From positions 1 to 64,000 of the forward strand of contig JADGJC010000135.1 of assembly GCA_027596075.1 (NCBI GenBank): a stretch of 64,000 nucleotides of DNA. The letters are read 5' to 3'. Made by a program: the position numbers and the translations under genes. Shown here piece by piece: positions 1,793 through 47,213 of this stretch (its first letter is position 1; every line of letters begins with the position of its first letter). The DNA is from Rhizophlyctis rosea. Taxonomy: Eukaryota > Chytridiomycota > Chytridiomycetes > Rhizophlyctidales > Rhizophlyctidaceae. The notes beneath the pieces were generated by a model. It saw only the letters and a list, made by a program, of their open reading frames with translations, did not search any database and was not told the DNA's origin.

Positions 1793-3317
1793 TCAAACCT
1801 CAATCCTTACAACCGGCACTTCAACCTCACCAAATACCACCAACCCCACAAGATCCTCCCTCATTGCAGCAGTAGCGGGAGTTGCGCGAATCGTAATGCT
1901 GGTATTGGGACGCGCGGCGCGGATGGTACCGATAGGAGTGCGGAGGTCGCGCATGCGTGCGCCGTCGCGGGGAGGGGAGTATGTTAGGAGGATGGAGGTT
2001 AGGATTGGGAGTTTGGGCAGCGCGTTGACAATGATGTGGTCGATGGAGATACCGTTGTAGAGGTGGAGGGTTGTGAGGCGTGGTGAGGTTTCTTGGGCCT
2101 TGGCGACCCCAATCAAGAAGTTGTGGAGCTAGATAAGTGCGCCAGGAATGTAATGAGATTTCTTGTACTCGGAGTGGGAAACGGGTTGAGAATCAACAGT
2201 AACAGTTTCGCAATGACTCACATTGTTTACAGTTAGCTGATCATCATTCCACACTAGCGACTCCAACACCTTAGCCTTCATTCCGGTTGCTCTGAAATCA
2301 ATACCAGATACCGACGTGCGGGCAAGAACCAGCTCTCGCAAGTTGTGTTGCATCTGAGAGGATAGAAAGCGTGCTGGGACGGTGACGGCTTGCAATTTCA
2401 TACGTTGTATGATCAAATTCATGAACGGCGGCGCAATGCATGTCGCCAATGCCCCAGTGAGAAAATCATGAAACCGTTACGATTAAGAACTCAACGACAT
2501 GCATAGGAAAGATATGTCAACACTGCAATGCTTACCGATCACCATCCATCTCCCCAACTCCAACATAATCGCAAGCCCCCACCCCCCCCCCCCCAATATC
2601 CCATCGTTCAACATCCCCTTCGCTTCGCGCCACAAGCTGTCTGATGGTGTTGCTCGCCGCGAACTTTACATTGATTCGAACTCGCACGAGTGGAGCGTCA
2701 TCGTTCTGTGCGCTTTCCGCGGGTGTTGGAGAGGAAGAGGGAGAGGGTTGTGGGGACCATTGCGTTGCAATGTGGTGGGTAAGTGGCGATGGTGTGGTTT
2801 GCTCTGGCTCGGCTTCCGGCTCGACTTCGTCGGCGTCTTCGGTTGCTGCTGCGGCGGCGACGTCGGGGACGTTTTGAGGGGCTGGTGGTTGTGCAGGTGC
2901 GGGTGGGACTGGAGCGGGTAGCGTGTTGTTAGGGAGAGGGGTGTTATTGTGGGGTGTGACGATGGGATTGGGGTTGGTCGGTGGGAGAGGGTTTGGAGGG
3001 TTTTGCGTGGGGTTCGGGTGAGGGGGCTGTGGGTTTGTGGGGTGGGGCGGGAGGGGGTTCGGAGGGTTAGGGTTTTGAGTAGGGACGGGGTGCTGTGGTT
3101 GTTGCTGATGATGATGTTGCTGATGATGATGTTGGTGTTGCTGATGCTGTTGCTGCTGTTGGTGTGCTGTGTGAGCGACGTCTTGAATGAAGAGGACTCC
3201 GTGTGGGTCTGGAAGGTTGCTTATATCGTGTAGGTGACTTTGTTGGACTTGAAGCCTAGTCCGGGGAACAGCCGGTATGTGATTAGCTGGAGGTGTATTT
3301 TCCTGGTCGGCCATCAT
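1793..3317 (-). CDS. LRR/F-box-like protein with Q/H/P-rich N-terminus
   Basis: Three exons on the minus strand: 3317-2536, 2388-2222 and 2128-1793. The first begins MMADQENTPP and carries long Gln, His, Pro and Asn runs (about residues 60-140), so its N-terminal half is probably disordered. Exons 2 and 3 join in phase and give leucine-rich segments such as HNLRELVLARTSV and SPRLTTLHLYN, the pattern of fungal F-box/LRR proteins; no F-box could be placed with certainty. Exon 1 joins exon 2 in frame only if the 13-C run at 2583-2595 is one base shorter; then LAIMLELGRWMVIG runs straight into the LRR part. Function is not known; a substrate-recognition role is inference only. Confidence 0.55.
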
Positions 3318-3809
3318 AAGGGCTGAGGGGCGTGCGGAGAGTAGGTAACAGCGTGGGAAAAAGTAAAAGCAGAGGCTGGCGGGGGGAGTGTTTTCCTTTG
3401 GGCCTTTTATAAGAAATGTCCACACTCAGCCTCACTCAGCATGCGCATGACACCCCGTCATCCCCGTCACATCATGCCATGACTATGGCTCTGTTTGAGA
3501 GTTCATTGTTGATTGCGCCCTCTCTCTCTCATCGTGTTGGTGGCACAGCACTACCAATCAATCCCAATTGAGTTTAATCTACTAAACTTTGATTATGTGA
3601 TTACTAGATTATGCACGTGGCTTACCGGTTGCAATGGTGATTGGATCCAAAAAGCGAAGTCGGGCGCAGCCGGCTTGAACATTAATGCTCCAAATATGGC
3701 AAGTGCACCATCAAGCCCGCCAATCTCTGGCAAGCGAGCATAACAACTCGCCGATCCTGTCACTCTCCCACTTTCTTCTTCACCGCAAACATTCTTTCAG
3801 GCCAGCTCC
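3318..3809. other. Spacer upstream of the LRR-like gene
   Basis: No gene seen. It holds the presumed promoter of the minus-strand LRR-like gene and leads into the hairpin array. Confidence 0.4.
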
Positions 3810-4222
3810 GTAACCATTAACCTTCGGGCATGGTTACTGAGGACAACTACTATTCCTTCGGGAATCAGTAGGGACCACGCATCTTTCCCCTTACCGGATA
3901 CCTTCGGGCCTGGTAAGCCGGAACTTGTCATTGACAACCTTCGGGCTCGATGACTGGGCTTCTCGTTCCTGCATTTCTTCGGGGTGCTGGGAACTGGATT
4001 CGGCTCTGCGTGGTTATCATATTGCACCTTGTCACGATTTCTTCGGAGCGAGACAAGCTGCAAGCTGCCGCCGTCCCGTGTTACCTTCGGGCCATGGGAC
4101 CTGCGACAGGTGGTGGGGTAAGTCTGTTGTCATCCTAGTCGGTAACCTTCGGGCCTGGCTAGCGTGGACAGATGCACCTCATCACCAGCGCCGCGACTGT
4201 ATTTCTTCGGGGTATGGACGCT
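3810..4222 (+). ncRNA. Array of nine UUCG-capped hairpins
   Basis: Nine inverted repeats, each with a TTCG loop closed by C-G, follow one another in the same orientation: 3810-3837, 3847-3871, 3890-3917, 3927-3954, 3965-3994, 4028-4057, 4073-4100, 4135-4162 and 4187-4222. Loop-proximal sequence comes in two types, ACC-TTCG-GG and TTTC-TTCG-G. The outer stems differ completely from unit to unit (for example CTACT/AGTAG, GTCAT/ATGAC, GTTCC/GGAAC, CTTGTC/GACAAG, GTCCC/GGGAC) yet each remains paired. That is the mark of selection on RNA fold, or of a mobile hairpin family. UUCG is an unusually stable RNA tetraloop. I do not recognise the family. It could be a structured non-coding RNA or a transferred mitochondrial hairpin cluster. 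Confidence 0.6.
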
Positions 4223-4416
4223 GCAAACCAGTTTGGGCCTCGCTCGAACTACTGGTACCTGAACTGCGTAATGGCCGGTCTTTTTGGCAAGTAGTGCAAT
4301 TCAAGCCCGTGGGTTGCCTATTTGTAACGGTCCCCATGTCAAATTGCTAATTGGGGATCAAAGAGGGAGGAAAGGTGCAAGCCCGTGTGCTGATTACTCT
4401 CCACTTTTTTTTTTCA
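4223..4416 (+). other. Structured tail of the hairpin array
   Basis: Further pairing follows the array without TTCG loops. The clearest is GGTCCCCA at about 4328 with TGGGGATC at about 4352. Two short similar units, each containing CAAGCCCGTG, lie at about 4303 and 4379. A run of about ten T precedes the tRNA-like element. Confidence 0.35.
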
Positions 4417-4469
4417 GCTTGAGTTGGTACCACCGCTTCAGGTGCGACGGTTCGATCCCGTCGACAAGC
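4417..4469 (+). other. tRNA-like element lacking a full D arm
   Basis: GCTTG at the 5' end pairs with CAAGC at the 3' end. A perfect T arm (GACGG, loop TTCGATC, CCGTC) matches the Pol III B box. The middle holds only CACC-GCTTCA-GGTG. At 53 nt it is too short for a normal tRNA and the acceptor stem is mismatched at positions 6-7. It may be a decayed tRNA, a mitochondrial-type tRNA relic, or a Pol III promoter for a longer RNA. Confidence 0.35.
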
Positions 4470-5164
4470 TTTACTGCTTGTGTTGTGTGTTCTGTTTGCT
4501 ATGGTGTGAAAGTTTCCTATATTTCGTTTGCTGTGGTCTGAAAGTTGTTCAAGTGCATTGCGGCAAGTCATTGTGTGAACTCGCTCATTACATTCTCTTG
4601 TGTGAAGGAGAGGACACACGTCAGGAATGCAGGTGGGAGACGCGCTCATTCCGTTCAGAGTTGTCAAGAAGTCACCGAAATGGCGGTGGTCTGTTGCTTT
4701 GACAGGTTGGTGCACTAGGTTGACTCCCGCAACCGCCGGCCGGGAGCCCTCCAACTGCATTTCGTGTCTGAGGTGTCAAAAGTATCCACGTTTCCCACGT
4801 TCTATCGCCAAACACTCTACCAAACCCCTCGCAATGTCGTTGTCTTCAAGAACTCTCTCACTGCTCTGCTCAAGCTGTCCCATACCCATGGAAGTCCCCG
4901 CCTTCCATGACCCGACACCCATCCGAGCTCATCACGCAACACCAACAGCTGACAACATACTATCAAATACATCACCGAAAATTAATCATTCGCAACCTTA
5001 GTCCTACGCAAACCTAACTACAGCCTACTCCAACCACTACGCCAAACCCCCCTCCACTGCACACCCACCACCACGTCCCGACTCCCCCACACCACCTCCC
5101 CAAACTCATCACCCATCCACCACCCCTTCACTGCCCAACGTCTGCTATAGCAATTTCTGCATAT
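4470..5164. other. Intergenic, no gene recognised
   Basis: Only short overlapping frames are present, with a C/A-rich stretch at 4880-5110. No convincing coding signal. Confidence 0.4.
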
Positions 5165-15485: not shown

Positions 15486-15574
15486 GCTCGCTTAGCTCAG
15501 TTGGTTAGAGCGTGGTGCTAATATGTTTCCACAAAGAAACGCCAAGGTCACAGGTTCGATCCCTGTAGTGAGCA
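15486..15574 (+). tRNA. tRNA-Ile (AAT) with 15-nt intron
   Basis: The acceptor stem GCTCGCT/AGTGAGC has seven pairs including one G-T. D arm GCTC/GAGC, anticodon stem TGGTG/CGCCA, anticodon loop CTAATAA after splicing, T arm ACAGG-TTCGATC-CCTGT, discriminator A. The intron (TGTTTCCACAAAGAA) sits one base after the anticodon, the canonical site cut by tRNA splicing endonuclease. A and B boxes are intact, so this looks functional. Confidence 0.93.
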
Positions 15575-15688
15575 CTATTTGTGTCGAGTCCTCATTCTTT
15601 TTGAGCGGGCAGTTTTCCCTATGTACTGAGCACTATTCGTGTCGAGTCTTCTTCATTCTTTTTGATCGGGCAGTTTTCCCTATGTACT
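15570..15688 (+). repeat. Tandem duplication starting inside the tRNA 3' end
   Basis: Copy 1 (15570-15627) begins with GAGCACTATT, the last bases of the tRNA plus flank. Copy 2 (15628-15688) repeats the whole unit with a few substitutions and a 3-bp insertion. Copy 2 therefore carries a second tRNA 3' tail without a tRNA body. Confidence 0.85.
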
Positions 15689-19994: not shown

Positions 19995-21711
19995 TATGGT
20001 GTGATATTCTGGGTTGGCAAATGTATTAATGAGAGGTTGTCTCCCTGCCCTTTCCCCTCTTTTTCCCTTCAACACTGAAGTCAACACTCAGCTGCCCCCG
20101 AGCCTACTTTCTCCACCTTCTCCCATCGTCCCCGCTTCCAAAGAAAGCTGCACCATCTCAAATTGATTCATCTGATGATCTGGCAAAACCTTTCCCGAAT
20201 CCGCACCACAAATATCAAGCAACCGATGTCTTATTGGCCCCACTCACCTCTGATTTGAAGGGAGTGAACAATGGTTGATGTTCAAGAACATCAACGAACA
20301 TCAACAGCCCGGTAGATAGGTATCTGTTCACAAGCACCAGCGGTATCTAGGTATTTCCGTTTGAAAAAGTAGGATAATCCTACTGGATACTAGCAATGGA
20401 CCTTCATAATGTGCAAGAGGCTAGGTAATAATCGGAGGCAGGCTTGTATCAGTGGGGAATGCAATAACACCGCGGTGAAGCTTTCGGAAGTTGATGGAGT
20501 GTAGAAAAGACGTGAAAACGGGGATGGAGCACCACTTGTGACCTACCTGTCTGTCTTTTTGGGTTGTTTGGTATATTAGATGTTAGTGGGGTACCCCTCT
20601 CGGAGGGCGTTAGGTAATAAGCAGTGAAATGAGGTGATTCGCCGAGAGGCAGTGAAAATGGGGTCTGAATGTGTGGATGGGTTCGCCTCTTTTTGCTGCG
20701 CTGTTGCGGCAGATCAAACAAACTGGAATGTGTTTGGAGTGAGCCCCGTGCCACGAAGAGGCTTGGGGCTGTGGCCGAAAGAAACTTGATCATCCATGGT
20801 CAGCGTGTAAGGCGTGTTGTATCCCGTATGTGACCAGACAGTGGCAGACACCCTAAACCAGACAGTCCAAAATGCTTCGTCTCTCCTTCAACCGAACACA
20901 AGAAATGGCGCAGCATCCATTCCATCGACAACCTCTTGCATCATTGTTACACACTACTATGCATTCTCGGTGCTTCCTCAATCCAAATGCTCCGAGTACC
21001 AGATGGCTGCATGGGCACGACTCCACGGAAAATGATCGAGGGGTGTGCAATCCACGTGTCATCGATCTGGTCCATAGGGACATTCATCAGTCTAAGCCAC
21101 ACTGTTACACCTGCCCCATTTAGCTCCATTTGCTGGATACACCGGCCGGCATGTCGGGATTTGGTATTCGATAGTTGCTTCACCCTCATCAAGAACTTTC
21201 CGCACAGATTTTCACATTCTGAAGTATTCAGTTAGCACTATGCCAGCCCATGATTGTCATGATTTGAGTACAAAGCATCAAATGCGAGTCTCACATCATT
21301 CATGTAGAGCTTCCTCAACCACCATCCCCGCTGACGCAAGATGGACTGGTCGCTCCAGGAATTGGACAAGAGCGGCTTAGAGGGAACTGTTCACATCTCT
21401 TTCAATGCGTGTGCCCCAACTTCCAATGGGAATGTTGCAGTGAGCATGTTGATGACGACGGATGCAACATGCAAAAATGCGAGCCCATCGCAGCATGAAT
21501 TTGATCAGCCCGTTAATAGTGTTTGCACGGGCGCCTCAGGACACTCATTGAACAAGCACAAAGTCGCACGTGTATTTACAACTGACACCATGTTAATCTA
21601 TGTCCACGTTTTCCCATCTGGAATGCATGCCCTTCTCCCACCTCAAAAAAACACAATACGGCCGTCACCCTGTCTTCTCTCCCTCCTTGTTGCCTGTTGC
21701 ACGGGTCCATC
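19995..21711. other. Intergenic region
   Basis: No gene recognised. A frame over 21341-21961 on the plus strand is antisense to the acetyltransferase and is not supported. The kinase promoter presumably lies in 19995-20500. Confidence 0.45.
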
Positions 21712-37403: not shown

Positions 37404-40325
37404 CTACGCCCTTTCCCTCTCCCTTTCCCTCTCGCGTTCCCTCTCCCTCTCCCTCCTCTCCTCCCTCTCTCTATCCTTCCTAACCCTCCTTTCCTCCTCC
37501 GTCTCTCCCTCCCTCTTTGAACTCCGATGATGCGAATGAGAATGCTTCGAACTCTTCTTCTTCTCACTCCTGTGACTCTTCTTCTTCTTGTGGGCCCCAC
37601 CCTCACCACTCCCCTCACCCCCCTCCGCACCCTCCCCACCGCCACCTTCCTCCCGGCTCTTCCTCTTGCGGTCGCGGTGACGGCTGCGGGACCGCGAATG
37701 TGACCGAGACTTGGATCGCGATTTCGACCGTTCGCGCGGGGTGTGGACGCCCGAGCCGGTGGATTGCACCACGCCCTCCATGCCTGAGGGCGCCGGGCTG
37801 GGACTGTGCACCCGTCCGCCAGCGTCACTCCTCGGGCTGGGGCTCCGATCCGACCTTGGCGTCCGCGTCCGGCTCCGTCCCCTCCCGCCATCATCAGGAG
37901 TCATCGGAAGACTCCGTCCGGCTTCCCTGTCCCTTTCTCTTTCCCGTTCCCTCTCCCGTTCCCTTTCCCTCTCGTACTCGCTGATGCTGTCCCGCCTCCC
38001 AACACTACTCGTCCCTGGGCTTGCACTCCTCCTTCCGTACCGGTCCCTCTCCGGTTCACGGTACGGCCCCGCCGCACCAACCCGCGAGGAGAACCCACTC
38101 CCACGAGACCCCCTCCGATCAGCGTCCCCGTCCCGCGCCCGCTCCTTGACCGAGACTTCCACATTGTCATACCGGCCGTATCGGTCCCTTTCCCTGTCCC
38201 TGTCCCGCTGACTCTGCGGGGAGTAGTCCCGGCCGCCCCTCTCGCGCTCGTGTCGGTCACCGCTGGCTGAGCTGTCGATGCGGTCCCGGCCGAATTCGTC
38301 TTTGTCAGCGTCCTTCATTCGCTCGTCGTCTTCCTTGGAACGAGGTGGACCTGGCAAGCGCGATCGATCGCCGTGGGGTGGGTAAGCGCCATGTGGGCCA
38401 CCTCCTGGGTATGGCCTGGCAACGTGGAATACAATTGATAATGGAGAGGAAGATGTGATGGAAGATTGGAAACATGGATGGGTAGGAAGAAGAGAAATAC
38501 AGTTATCAGCACAAATTGTCGAAATTTACGAGTCCACAGTCAGATGGGAACGCAAGCAGCACAGGTTTGTACAACTTCATTTACACCACGAAGAACTAGA
38601 AGCAATACCAGAGATCGCGAACGATGCCTACCTAGGTGGGTACCCTCTCCCAACACCCCTCCCAGCACCTCCAAAGCCAGGACCAGGCCCATACCCATCA
38701 TAGTCATACCCATCGGGGCCATCAAAGAATGGCGGTCCACCAGGTCCAGGTGGGTAAGGCCCGCGTTCGTAGAAGCCGCCCGGACCGCCGTACGCCGGTC
38801 CACCGGGGAACCCTCGGCCGCGACCAAAGGGAGGACCCATCATCGGAGGGCCGGGGAAGAATTCCGGGTGGTCGTAGTAACCGCCGCCAGCGGCTCCGCC
38901 GAGATAAGGTGGAGCGGGTAAACCTGCCGCAACAGGAGTCGGTGTTGGTGCAGCCGCCGCCTGACTGCCTGGTGCGCCGGCTCCACGGCCGTATCCCGCG
39001 AATGCGGCGTCTTTGTTGCTGCCACCCCGTGCGTTGCCCGCAGCTGCTCCTCCGCGGCCAGCAGAAGCGGCGCCCCGTCCTGTACCGACGACTGTGGATG
39101 TAACTGAGGTTGAGCCCGCTTGCGTTGTTGCAGCGCCTCCTGGGGCAGACATTGGTTGTGCAATGGCAGTTTTGCGTACGATGCCTTGGGCAGCTTCCAT
39201 TCGGGCTTCTTTTGGGTCTTTTGGGACGGTGCGGAAGGGGTTGGCTGTTGCTCCTGGCTGCGAGAACTTGACGGTTGGTTTTCGACCATGAAGCTCACTG
39301 TGTATGACATTTCAGGGTGAGAAGGTAAGGAAGGAGTAAAGGAGGAGGTTGAGGGATGCGGATTGATGTGAGATGGCACGATATATTGTCATGATCGATA
39401 GGATATAAAGAAAAAATACAAAAGAAATGCAGTCAATATCACATACAATGTCATAATACAACACTCCGACCCGTGCGGCGCCCTCTATACAGAACATACA
39501 GACACACAAAATAGATACATACATTGCATCAAAGAACTCCTTGGAAACGGAACATGCGTCCGGATGCGTGAACAGCATGTAGCAAATGCCTTTCGACTTC
39601 CCATTCACTCGGTGCTCACTGAAGGCCAGTTCCGCTTGAACAAGATAGTCCTCCGTGCCAGCCTCTTTGAGTACGAGGTGGATATCTTCGTCTGTCGTCC
39701 ACTGAATTGAAGATACCCGCACCATTAGTTTCCATCCATTCATGAGTGGGAAACTGAACCCTTAACTCACCCAAGTGAGATCTTCCACAAACAAACCCCT
39801 CGGCATATTTGCCTGCGCAAGAGTCAGTTCCAATGACAATCTCGGCGTTGGTGCGGTCTGTGCCTGCACTTGTTGCCCGGATTGTCCTTGTCCTTGTCCC
39901 GCCGGACTTCCATTGTCCACATCCATCGGAGCAGCTTGTCCAGCAGAGGTTCCTTGGCCTGGTGTTGTTTTCACATCCAACGTAGTCCCTCCAGTTCCAT
40001 TCACAGTCGAACTTGAAGCGCCCTCGGGAAGTCCCATCAAGTCGTCTTCACCGCCGTAATCCAGCACATCCTCCATCCCGCTGGCGGAGTGCTGGGAGGC
40101 GCGACGTGCAGGGACTGCAGGGGTCGCATTGGGTTTCTTTGTTGAATCGGTTTGTTGCGAGTCTAGATCACCGTAGAGAAGAGCGTCCTCCTAAGCAGCC
40201 ACCAAACGAGAGTGTTAGAATCGGCGGTTCAAGTATGGGAATGAGTGCGCTCAAAGTAGCATGCGTAAAGGACTTCTCACCTCTCCTCCCAAATCCCCAT
40301 AGATATCGCCGACGTCGTCCGCCAT
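37404..40325 (-). CDS. CPSF6-like RRM/RS protein (3' end processing)
   Basis: Five exons (40325-40281, 40190-39771, 39701-39523, 39297-38632, 38415-37404) give 773 residues. Residues ~150-245 form the CPSF6/CFIm68-type RRM: FVEDLTWWTTDEDIHLVL, then EHRVNGKSKGICYMLF and LHGRKPTVKF. The acidic N-terminus (MADDVGDIYGDLGGE) also fits the family. A Gly/Pro-rich middle is followed by an Arg-Ser/Asp-Arg/Glu-Arg C-terminus with long RE and RD runs and a Lys-rich block. Known role: the large subunit of cleavage factor I binds CFIm25 and guides poly(A) site choice in the nucleus; the RS-like tail contacts other processing factors. The tail is longer than in human CPSF6 (551 residues in total). Confidence is high for the RRM type, lower for strict orthology. 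Confidence 0.88.
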
Positions 40326-44737: not shown

Positions 44738-47213
44738 TCAAACCCCGACGACATCCTTCAACTCCTGCAAAAGCACCTCCTCCTCATCACCCACCCACGT
44801 CTCCCACGTACTCAAAAACCACTGATCCCCCTTCCTCGCCATCCTCTTCACCTTCCTCCACCCCATCTCATCAAACACCCCACCCCACACACCATCCCTC
44901 ATCTCCCTAACCCTCCTCAAAACCTCCACCAACGCATCCTCCTTTGCCATATCCACCTCCTGTCCCGCTCCACCACTGCTACTGCTACCACCACCACCAC
45001 CACCCACCGCCACATCCTCCAACTCCCCAACCAAAACCCCGTCCTCGAGATCCTCAAAAGCGCGATACGTAACCCAGAACTCGCCGTCGTTCGTCGCGCA
45101 GAGTTCTTTGAGTTTCGATGCGGTTGGGGAGCCGTCTTCGAGGGTTGCTGTGAAGGGGAGGTTGCGGAGACGGCGGAGAGCGACGGTTTTGCGGGCGCGG
45201 GGGTCCAGGCCGTTGACGGATTGCCAGGTGCCGTTGGCGTGGGGCGTGGCGTACGGTGGTGGTGCGGCGGCGACGGTGGAGGCGGGTGTGGGTGTGGGTA
45301 TATGGTTGTGGAAGATGTCTTCTTTGAGAACTTCGAAGAGGTGGGGGTTGTTGAGGTTGGTGTCGTGGTTGTGGTGGTGGGAGGGGGTTGGTGGGAGGGG
45401 AGAAGGGGCGAATGCGGTAGGGGTGGCGGTTGCCATTGGGATGTTGAGGGGAGAGGCCATGAAGGATGTAGAGGCGGAGGCGGAGGCGTATTTGGCTGAT
45501 GGAGACCTGGTCTTCGATTTCTTCGTACTGTGGAATGCATGTGAGCCCTGCGAATGTTCAAGACAAGAATCAGATGTGATCACATACGGCGCCGCATCGG
45601 CCTCCGCCGGTTCAGCAAGCAGTTCCCCAATTGTTTGGTCCTTACTGACGCCCTTGCGCTTCCTTGGGGTCGGCCCTGTATTGTGATGATTCAGTCCATC
45701 AGTCTCACAAACCAAAGTACATCGCCCATCGTTTACCGCTGAATTCCTCCTCCTCGATGTGTTTCAGCATCTTATCCAACCACTCAACCTCTTCCTCAAA
45801 GCCAGCGATCGCCGCAAGGACCTCCCTCAATCCCTCATATCTCCTCTTCACATTCCAGTTGAGACGGTAGTGCAACTTTTGGTAGCATCCCCTGCAGAAG
45901 CGAACAGGCCCCAGGAACTCGCGCCCCGGGACGACGGCCATGATGCAACTTGGGTCCAGCGTGCATACCCTCAGACTCAGCAGCTCCTTCGCAATGTAGT
46001 GAGCGAGGATCTATTTACCATTAATGTCAACTTGCGTTACAAATTTTGTTCAATTAATGAGAAGGACGACAAACCTTGATGATCCGTTTTGCTTGAGCAG
46101 GATCGTCCTCCGGATCCGCAGGGGCCTTCCTGGCCCTTTTTGCTTGCTTTTTCTTCGCATCCACCATGCTCACAACGCAGTAAACTTTTCTCTTGTCGGG
46201 ATCATCCTTGGCTGCCTCATCGTCGGGTGGGTAACCGAAGACGCTGGAGCCGCTGATGGCCCAGCGATCGCTCGGTTGGTCGGTGTCGTCTCCCTCGTTG
46301 TAGATCCAGCCCGAGACGCTAGCTTTCACCAAACCGACGATGCTGAAATTTTGTTCTAAATCAGCACTTTCTGAATGCATGTACATGCCCGCTTCGATAA
46401 GCTCTCACCGCCCCAGCACGCTCCCCTCCGCGACATCATCCACCACATAAGTAGCCTATGGCCCACATACCAGCATGCTTCCTTGGGATCTCTTGTAGAG
46501 TACTGGGCGTCCAGAGCGTCAAACAGATCGTCGACGTCCACGTCTCCCTTCCACTTTCCGGTCAATTTGTCTGTTTCGGTTGTATCGAATGGTAACGGAT
46601 CCTTGATGTATCCAAAGCGCAGGCCGGCGAACAAGGCGGATAGAATCCGGAGACAGGAGGCCTTGAACGGTCCTCCCAAGTTGCTCGGATCCAACACGTC
46701 GTGCTGGTGATTACCGTATTAGATGTGCTTTTGGTGATATCATGGTGCCAGCAGTATACTGTGTGCCAGCGATGCTATTTGTTATGATGCTGCCAGTATA
46801 ATGTGCGCTGCGCGCACTTGTGCGAGCTTCGCTCGCGATCCGTTCGCAACAAAGTCGCTCACGTAGGGCTGGCGCCCTCCAATTCGTGCCTTCGGGGCCA
46901 TCCTGTGGATGGCCTCCCAACCCACCCACCCACCTAGCCCATCCGTTCGCTACGCTCACAGCCACCCACCCACAAATCACACACAGATAATCACCTGCAA
47001 CTTTGTGATGTAAACGTTCCTTTCTTCAAAATTTACCCAGACCTTGTGAGTTTCTCCACCAGAGACATATTCATCGAAAGACTGATAATCAGTATTTTTG
47101 AATAGTTTCTTTGCTTCCGTTGCGTTGAGAGGCTTGTCGAACAAGTCACTTTTGAGGGCGATACCGAGGACCTTGTCCTGGATCCTGCCGAGGTTGCCAC
47201 GGCCTTTAGTCAT
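44738..47213 (-). CDS. Unidentified nuclear-looking protein with Cys pairs
   Basis: Five exons (47213-46995, 46703-46471, 46342-46075, 46010-45737, 45675-44738) give 643 residues, every junction in phase. The N-terminus is MTKGRGNLGRIQDKVLGIAL. A basic patch (AKKKQAKRARKAPAD, about 210-225) suggests nuclear location. Residues ~250-280 have CTLDPSC and CRGC, a possible zinc site, in a segment EFLGPVRFCRGCYQKLHYRL, followed by a helical region. The C-terminal half is Ser/Pro/His-rich, then helical with WRKVKRMARKGDQWFLSTW near the end. I do not recognise the family and propose no function. Intron 1 (46994-46704) is unusually hairpin-rich. The gene is divergent from the WW/RS gene. Confidence 0.72.
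46720..46970 (-). repeat. Hairpin-rich element inside an intron
   Basis: Intron 1 of the surrounding gene holds back-to-back short palindromes, read on the minus strand: GCGCGCAGCGC, GCGAGCGAAGCTCGC, GGGCGCCAGCCC, GGCCATCCACAGGATGGCC and GAGCGTAGCGAACGG. Part of it resembles 27546-27572 in intron 1 of the P4-ATPase. Confidence 0.55.

What the first reader, a model, noticed from the sequence alone, without database searches (positions are those of the whole stretch)
3810..4222. Directional array of nine UUCG tetraloop hairpins with different stems
Nine consecutive inverted repeats share only the C-TTCG-G cap and one orientation, while their outer stems differ in sequence but stay paired (for example GTCAT/ATGAC versus GTCCC/GGGAC). 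Spacing is about 40-60 bp. Paired change without sequence conservation argues for an RNA whose fold matters, or for repeated insertion of a mobile hairpin. Mobile double-hairpin elements are known in chytrid (Allomyces) mitochondrial DNA, so a mitochondrial insertion into the nucleus is one explanation; a new structured nuclear RNA is the other. No protein frame explains it.
Basis: partly seen in the sequence, partly recalled or inferred. Interest (0 to 1): 0.8.

Follow-up and report, generated by a model that had tools for sequence, protein, structure and literature searches.

The report
Fungal RNA with locus-specific hairpin arrays
A soil fungus appears to carry a family of unusual non-coding RNAs, each studded with about four to nine hairpins whose tips are much alike within one gene but differ between genes, and each lies near a member of one unknown protein family, which suggests matched RNA-protein pairs.

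Summary
The nine hairpins are real, confined to the + strand and far beyond chance. The genome is the chytrid Rhizophlyctis rosea. The array is part of a predicted ~650-nt RNA gene with promoter-like motifs upstream, two AGCCCG-loop hairpins, a T10 run and a downstream B-box. I found eight such loci (A = window, B-D, F-I). All use UNCG tetraloops, but the commonest cap differs by locus: CC[UUCG]GG, GC[UUCG]GU, CU[UUCG]GG, GG[UUCG]CU, CC[UACG]GG, UG[UGCG]CG, CA[UUCG]UG, CU[UGCG]AG. Within loci the caps are nearly constant, while in most loci the stems below differ in sequence yet stay paired (F is weak, B's stems are near-identical). F's promoter matches this genome's U6 promoters. A paralogue of one orphan protein family lies nearby on the opposite strand in 8 of 8 loci. 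Rfam gave no match; Pfam only weak LRR matches; the paper searches listed no description. Best reading: nuclear, probably Pol III-made RNAs that present several copies of a locus-specific hairpin to a cognate partner, most likely the linked protein. RNA family: strongly supported. Partner and function: inferred. Mitochondrial or mobile-hairpin origin: not supported.

The parts
3651..3661 (+). promoter-like motif AAAGCGAAGTC, present also at loci C, G, H (D has AACGCGAAGTC)
   Evidence: D read
3710..3718 (+). PSE-like ATCAAGCCC (core shared with R. rosea U6 promoters; at A no TATA box at the U6 spacing)
3739..3746 (+). TATA-like CATAACAA (weak; inference)
   Evidence: C has CATAAAAG
3810..3837 (+). 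hairpin 1: 8 bp, UAA/C internal loop, CC[UUCG]GG
3847..3871 (+). hairpin 2: fully paired with bulged C; lies in a GGACAA...GGGA context that looks shared with C, D and G
   Evidence: context read by eye, not tested
3890..3917 (+). hairpin 3: AUA/C loop, CC[UUCG]GG
3927..3954 (+). hairpin 4: CAA/C loop, CC[UUCG]GG
3965..3994 (+). hairpin 5: UUUC/GGG form
4028..4057 (+). hairpin 6: UC[UUCG]GA (paired change of the cap); 3x1 loop only in an alternative pairing
4073..4100 (+). hairpin 7: UUA/C loop, CC[UUCG]GG
4135..4162 (+). hairpin 8: UAA/C loop, CC[UUCG]GG
4193..4221 (+). hairpin 9: UUUC/GGG form
4296..4317 (+). AGCCCG-hexaloop hairpin 1
4374..4391 (+). AGCCCG-hexaloop hairpin 2
4405..4414 (+). 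T10, likely Pol III terminator and RNA 3' end
4417..4469 (+). tRNA-like block with B-box GGTTCGATCCC at 4449-4459, 44 nt after the T-run begins; conserved in B and C
1796..3316 (-). divergent gene of the orphan protein family (exons about 3316-2536, 2476-2213, 2131-1796; model inferred)
   Evidence: the splicing of paralogue H agrees with P0001

Best explanation
The array belongs to a nuclear non-coding RNA gene (about 3765-4414, +; the start is inferred), one of at least eight related loci in R. rosea, probably made by RNA polymerase III (upstream PSE/TATA-like signals, T-run, downstream B-box, few internal T-runs). Each RNA displays about 4-9 hairpins with a UNCG tetraloop. The loop and its closing pairs are a locus-specific identity element; the stem below only has to pair. 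The RNA therefore works as a multivalent docking array for one specific partner, most likely the protein encoded by the linked, opposite-strand gene (N-terminal motif, Q/H/P-rich linker, alpha-beta region, LRR-like end), either to scaffold it in an RNP or condensate or to hold it inactive. Shown: fold, family, control motifs, linkage, cap constancy within loci and diversity between loci. Inferred: Pol III, expression, protein binding, function.
For: Fold and chance controls. Eight loci in one genome. In the arrays 48 of 76 UNCG tetramers have both flanking pairs, against 222 of 1737 elsewhere in the window. Over 44 units the closing base has entropy 0.09 bit within loci and 1.82 pooled, loop position 2 0.09 and 1.32, stem positions -4 to -10 about 0.9-1.4 within loci. 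AGCCCG hairpins (10 sequences of A, B, C, D, I): 95% of cells paired and covariation score 0.815, neither reached in 500 shuffles. A T-run of 6-10 follows 8 of 8 arrays (5.4% of random 200-nt stretches hold one); between first cap and T-run only 3 runs of T>=4 occur in 3005 nt, expected 12.8 (32 of 5000 random sets as low). A B-box-like motif lies within 200 nt after the T-run in 7 of 8 (not F), background 1.6%. F's AGCCC-N12-TATATA promoter matches U6. The linked protein lies on the opposite strand in 8 of 8, head-to-head in A, B, C, D, F and tail-to-tail in G, H, I; D, F, G, H and I were found from the protein first, and the array was then found near it.
Against: No expression data. F's array is weak (detector run of 3; own arms pair worse than swapped ones, -10.0 against -12.8), has no B-box match, and a gene lies between its RNA and protein. 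B looks 5'-truncated and its units are near-identical. D has a further cap of its own type (39373) 20 nt beyond its T-run, and A has a T5 at about 4281 before its T10; both sit badly with the T-run as the only 3' end. A and C lack a TATA box at U6 spacing; D's promoter match lacks TGCAGG and is of a kind also seen in the control; G, H, I promoters differ from U6. Two of five covariation measures are not beyond shuffles (121 and 37 of 500). Linkage could be inherited from duplication of a pair rather than selected. No recognised RNA-binding domain; structure prediction failed. Constant caps could in principle reflect local homogenisation.
Confidence: 0.55

Rival explanations
1. Multivalent sponge or scaffold for an unlinked RNA-binding protein; linkage to the orphan protein is only inherited from duplication of a gene pair.
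For: The linked proteins have no recognised RNA-binding domain. Hairpin arrays are a known design of protein-sequestering RNAs (CsrB for CsrA: array recalled, sequestration in the start of an abstract).
Against: Caps differ between loci, which one common partner would not need; linkage survives a switch of relative orientation (5 head-to-head, 3 tail-to-tail).
Confidence: 0.22
2. UNCG caps only stabilise a rigid RNA (nuclease-resistant spacer or structural RNP core); nothing reads the cap.
For: UNCG loops stabilise hairpins (passage in PMC5640933). Pooled over loci the closing pair takes all six standard forms, five of them as a locus type, so no one sequence is required.
Against: Pure stability does not explain why the closing pair and loop position 2 hardly vary within a locus yet change between loci.
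Confidence: 0.13
3. Array of mobile or expanding hairpins (selfish DNA, DHE-like, or tandem slippage) without RNA function.
For: Many copies of a similar hairpin; hairpin elements are reported as mobile in some mitochondrial DNAs (titles and starts of abstracts). B's units are near-identical, as in recent tandem duplication.
Against: At A stems differ yet pair; one orientation; promoter-like and terminator signals; the UNCG strand folds and the other does not; linkage to one protein family.
Confidence: 0.05
4. Precursor of many small RNAs cut from the hairpins.
For: Spaced hairpins in one predicted transcript.
Against: Stems of about 8-14 bp are too short for Dicer (recalled), and stem sequences vary between units, so the products would be arbitrary.
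Confidence: 0.04

Closest known systems
Xist/XIST A-repeat (mammalian lncRNA silencing element)
   Same: A non-coding RNA with 7.5-8.5 copies of a unit carrying an AUCG tetraloop, proposed as a platform for protein binding (passages of PMC5742192).
   Different: A-repeats are conserved 26-mers with U-rich linkers in one long RNA; here stems diverge within most loci, the loop is UNCG, there are at least eight loci with different caps, and Pol III-like signals.
Type III toxin-antitoxin systems (ToxIN, CptIN)
   Same: Repeated RNA units paired with a protein (abstract of PMC8860590); co-evolution of the two is in the title of PMC4627078 (listing).
   Different: Bacterial; the toxin is an endoribonuclease and the repeats form pseudoknots. 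Here a fungal nucleus, hairpins, no nuclease domain recognised, opposite strands.
CsrB/RsmZ-type sequestering RNAs
   Same: Many hairpins in one RNA that titrate a protein (recalled; sequestration of CsrA in the start of an abstract).
   Different: GGA motifs, bacterial, one partner; no locus-specific cap code.
U6 snRNA and other type 3 Pol III genes; yeast SNR6
   Same: F shares the U6 AGCCC-N12-TATATA promoter; B-box beyond the terminator as in SNR6 (passages of PMC9136082). Of the three U6 genes here one has a B-box-like motif, 187 nt after its T-run.
   Different: The product is a predicted 300-650-nt hairpin array, not a snRNA; no Rfam match.
Allomyces-type double-hairpin elements
   Same: Hairpins in a zoosporic fungus (Allomyces: recalled).
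   Different: Mitochondrial mobile elements (recalled; titles); here in a nuclear contig, gene-like and with non-identical stems.

Membership tests
Allomyces-type double-hairpin elements | near-identical hairpin units inserted at many sites | tested here: not met
   stems differ between the nine units while pairing is kept; the 701-nt query gives three matches in 44 Mb, itself included
Allomyces-type double-hairpin elements | mitochondrial location | tested here: not met
   64-kb window at about 50% GC with nuclear-type genes; the mitochondrial genome itself was not searched
Xist A-repeat | 7.5-8.5 conserved 26-nt units with AUCG loops and U-rich linkers | tested here: not met
   loops UUCG, UACG, UGCG and divergent stems
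Type III toxin-antitoxin | endoribonuclease toxin encoded beside the RNA | tested here: inconclusive
   linked protein: only weak matches in Pfam and none convincing in PDB
Type III toxin-antitoxin | RNA repeats that form pseudoknots | tested here: inconclusive
   nested folding predicts hairpins with divergent stems; pseudoknots were not modelled
Type III toxin-antitoxin | RNA and toxin on the same strand (recalled) | tested here: not met
   opposite strands in 8 of 8 loci
Type III toxin-antitoxin | RNA neutralises a toxic protein | not testable with these tools
   needs expression in a laboratory strain
Pol III-transcribed gene | U6-type promoter | tested here: inconclusive
   F meets it; D only in part (13-nt spacing, no TGCAGG); A, C, G, H, I have partial or other motifs; B lacks a recognisable 5' end
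Pol III-transcribed gene | T-run terminator and few internal T-runs | tested here: met
   T6-T10 after 8 of 8 arrays; 3 internal runs of T>=4 against 12.8 expected, one of them a T5 at A
Pol III-transcribed gene | transcription by Pol III | not testable with these tools
   no transcriptome or ChIP data
Any Rfam family | covariance-model match | tested here: not met
   window at gathering threshold: only a tRNA at 15486; loci B, C, D, F, G, H, I at E<=1: none

The most novel reading that the evidence does not exclude
R. rosea carries a set of at least eight RNA-protein pairs that do not cross-react: each Pol III RNA displays a private UNCG cap code, read by its own linked paralogue of an orphan protein family. 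That would be a eukaryotic counterpart of type III toxin-antitoxin pairs, or a set of private condensate scaffolds, diversifying in step.
Probability: 0.4. Interest if true: 0.93.

Novelty: categorically new. Interest (0 to 1): 0.85.

Why it matters
It would be a natural set of parallel RNA-protein recognition pairs in one nucleus, where the readable part of the RNA (tetraloop plus closing pairs) changes from locus to locus while the rest keeps only its fold. That makes co-evolution of an RNA motif and its reader directly testable by swapping caps and paralogues. It also adds a class of snRNA-like genes in an early-diverging fungal lineage, and possibly orthogonal RNA tags. Rfam gave no match, and the rows listed by ten paper searches describe nothing like it.

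Tried and rejected
Protein-coding repeat: rejected; at A caps fall in all three phases and the longest ATG ORF has 62 codons, though one frame is stop-free for 169 codons. Spliced-exon idea (CTTTCAG and GTAAGT near the array): noted at first, dropped once T-run, B-box and relatives appeared; not formally excluded. tRNA or tmRNA: ARAGORN and Rfam see only the tRNA at 15486. Homologues elsewhere: the window protein alone gave no hit at E<=0.01; the profile of five paralogues gave one protein, R. rosea HDV00_012463, which is paralogue H itself, only the 7985 candidates sharing most words being scored. AlphaFold of P0001 alone gave pLDDT 40 and was not used. A covariance model of the 3' domain could not be run on the genome and went unused; pattern TATTGCACNNNNNC was uninformative (279 sites against 168 in the reversed control). 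Two further LRR-like places, C268 and C323 (E 4.4e-4 and 0.045), show no UNCG run of 4 or more in 9.9 kb and were not recovered with the five paralogues at E<=0.01, so I do not count them as family. The detector (run of at least 4, before the last piece of C625 was fetched) found arrays at A, C, D, G, H; B, F and I were recognised by reading. Of 25 other 3-kb loci only the one that holds D reached 4; a U6 locus (two overlapping loci) and F reached 3. Detector control: for ten other loop classes 3 of 140 strand scans gave runs of 4 or more (GNRA at C625; GNCG on both strands of the window), UNCG 5 of 14. Matched against swapped arms fails at F (-10.0 against -12.8) and the margin is small at C (-11.7 against -9.7) and B (-12.1 against -9.0). 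AAAGCGRAGTC has 83 sites against 54 in the reversed control, so more loci may exist; they could not be followed. AGCCCN{12,13}TATATA gave 22 sites against 17 in the control; seven carry TGCAGG before TATATA: three U6 genes, F, and three unknown genes.

Full report
OBSERVATION. The nine hairpins are present as described, on the + strand at 3810-4221. Folding, shuffles and arm swaps all put them far outside chance. Five of nine fold to one design: an 8-bp stem, a 3x1 internal loop (5' UAA, AUA, CAA, UUA, UAA; 3' C), two cap pairs and UUCG. Hairpin 6 has a paired change of the cap (UC/GA) and takes the 3x1 form only in an alternative pairing. Two others share a UUUC/GGG form. Hairpin 2 is different; the second hairpin of locus C is also unlike its neighbours, and both sit in a similar GGACAA...context that I also see in D and G (read by eye, not tested).

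FAMILY. The 3' part (4343-4562) matches two other places in the 44.1-Mb genome, both on contig C363, at about 75% identity. Both have their own TTCG arrays upstream, with other caps. The gene divergent from the window's array and genes next to both C363 arrays encode homologous proteins (33-39% identity over the matched stretches). Searching the genome with that protein led to C125 (E 8e-9) and, weakly, C134 (E 2.6; the kinship is firm with paralogue H as query, E 4e-13), and with the C134 copy to three genes on C625. Near each of these five proteins an array was then found. So there are eight RNA-protein loci: A (window), B and C (C363), D (C134), F (C125), G, H, I (C625).

CAP CODE. Commonest cap per locus among the 49 hairpins listed: A CC[UUCG]GG 6 of 9 (the rest UC[UUCG]GG or GA); B GC[UUCG]GU 5 of 6; C CU[UUCG]GG 5 of 7; D GG[UUCG]CU 5 of 7; F CC[UACG]GG 3 of 5; G UG[UGCG]CG 6 of 6; H CA[UUCG]UG 4 of 4; I CU[UGCG]AG 4 of 5. 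For the position-by-position table I dropped five of the 49 that were not of the locus type (one each in B, F and I, two in D), leaving 44, which favours constancy: the closing base has entropy 0.09 bit within loci and 1.82 pooled, loop position 2 0.09 and 1.32, position +1 0.00 and 1.59, whereas stem positions -4 to -10 have about 0.9-1.4 within loci. U, C and G of the loop are fixed by the selection itself. Counting all UNCG tetramers in the array stretches, 48 of 76 have both flanking pairs, against 222 of 1737 (12.8%) elsewhere in the window. Matched arms pair better than swapped arms in seven of eight loci; F fails, and B's stems are too alike for the test to say much. Many units also show an asymmetric internal loop at the base of the inner stem and a 5' bulge below the cap.

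OTHER PARTS. A, B, C, D and I carry hairpins with an AGCCCG hexaloop between array and T-run (one copy in C has AGCCCA). Over ten of eleven (D's middle copy, with another loop, was left out) 95% of cells pair and the covariation score exceeds 500 of 500 shuffles; five of six pairs change on both sides, but that count alone is reached by 121 of 500 shuffles, and the number of pair types by 37 of 500. The closing pair is A-U in A, B and one copy of C, U-A in D, one of each in I. T-runs of 6-10 begin 22-199 nt after the last cap before them in all eight loci; T>=6 occurs in 5.4% of random 200-nt stretches. Between first cap and T-run only three runs of T>=4 occur in 3005 nt, against 12.8 expected (32 of 5000 random sets as low), as expected for a Pol III transcript; but one of the three is a T5 in A at about 4281, and D has a fifth cap of its type at 39373, beyond its T-run. 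A B-box-like motif follows the T-run at 26-82 nt in seven of eight; background 1.6% per 200 nt. Yeast SNR6 also has box B beyond its terminator (passages of PMC9136082); of the three U6 genes here one has such a motif, at 187 nt. The three U6 genes carry AGCCC, 12 nt, TATATA with TGCAGG before the TATA box; F has the same promoter; D has 13 nt and no TGCAGG, a kind also met in the control. A, C, G and H share AAAGCGRAGTC and D has AACGCGAAGTC. Pol III is therefore likely for the family, but the promoters are not uniform.

PROTEIN. Five paralogues aligned (H, D, A, G, C) have a related N terminus, roughly M..ENxxP...TR..(RR)..L.DISNxP with variation (H reads LLSQMP), then a Q/H/P-rich linker, an alpha-beta region and an LRR-like end. 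I has the N-terminal motif too but was not aligned; F and B were not included, their N termini were not found. Paralogue H is 99% identical to the deposited hypothetical protein HDV00_012463 of Rhizophlyctis rosea (364 aa), which names the organism and supports the splicing; it was the only hit of that search. Pfam gives only weak LRR and other matches, the PDB nothing convincing. The N-terminal motif reminds me of cell-cycle degrons (KEN/D-box, recalled); I draw no conclusion. In all eight loci protein and RNA lie on opposite strands: head-to-head in A, B, C, D, F (F with a gene between); tail-to-tail in G, H, I.

MECHANISM. The linked, diverging paralogue is the most economical reader. Several copies per RNA give avidity: a scaffold, or a sink that holds the protein. 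These last steps are inference. I put about 0.9 on a real structured RNA family, 0.8 on Pol III for most members, 0.55 on the full docking model and 0.4 on private cognate pairs.

KNOWN SYSTEMS. It works like the Xist A-repeat, CsrB or type III toxin-antitoxin RNAs. The A-repeat and the toxin-antitoxin RNAs were tested and each misses a defining feature (membership table); CsrB was compared from memory only. Rfam: no match for any of the eight arrays. A paper on fifteen structured RNA motifs in fungi (PMC5640933, 12 of 17 passages seen) mentions one with a UNCG loop (SART-1); the passages describe no array, and the word chytrid does not occur in its text. The rows listed by ten paper searches give no description of this family; several lists were cut short, and most papers of subscription journals are outside that library.

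Noticed in passing
G000:C23:76780 (L037), C221:46626 (L044), C321:21531 (L049): Three more genes with a U6-like promoter (AGCCC, 12 nt, TATATA with TGCAGGG) whose RNAs have no Rfam match at E<=1; L044 seems to hold two copies of a ~55-nt unit and ends in a T-run like F (read by eye).
   Followed up: partly
L005 / C363:20500-19971 and 20537-21139: Locus B looks 5'-truncated: its RNA starts at what looks like the homologue of window 4010-4028, and I found no N-terminal exon of its protein, as if one deletion removed both starts.
   Followed up: partly
L032, about 180 bp beyond the U6 gene: A second copy of the U6 3' tail (CCTGAGTTGGAGACCCAGCCTAGCTGGGAAG plus T-run) lies downstream of the full U6 gene.
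   Followed up: no
window 15486-15688: tRNA-Tyr called with anticodon ATA over 90 nt (probably an intron), followed by a 2.1-copy tandem repeat with 61-nt period.
   Followed up: no
window 45131-45272 (+), 39074-38789 (-), 50839-50726 (-): Runs of 7, 7 and 4 GNCG-loop hairpins turned up in the detector control; possibly G+C-rich coding repeats.
   Followed up: no
proteins of loci A, C, D, G, I (H varies), N terminus: ENxxP...R..L.DISN-like motif resembling KEN-box/D-box degrons of cell-cycle proteins (recalled).
   Followed up: no
L029 / C125:26900-28400 (+): A gene that looks like V-ATPase subunit H (recalled, not searched) lies between RNA F and its protein.
   Followed up: no
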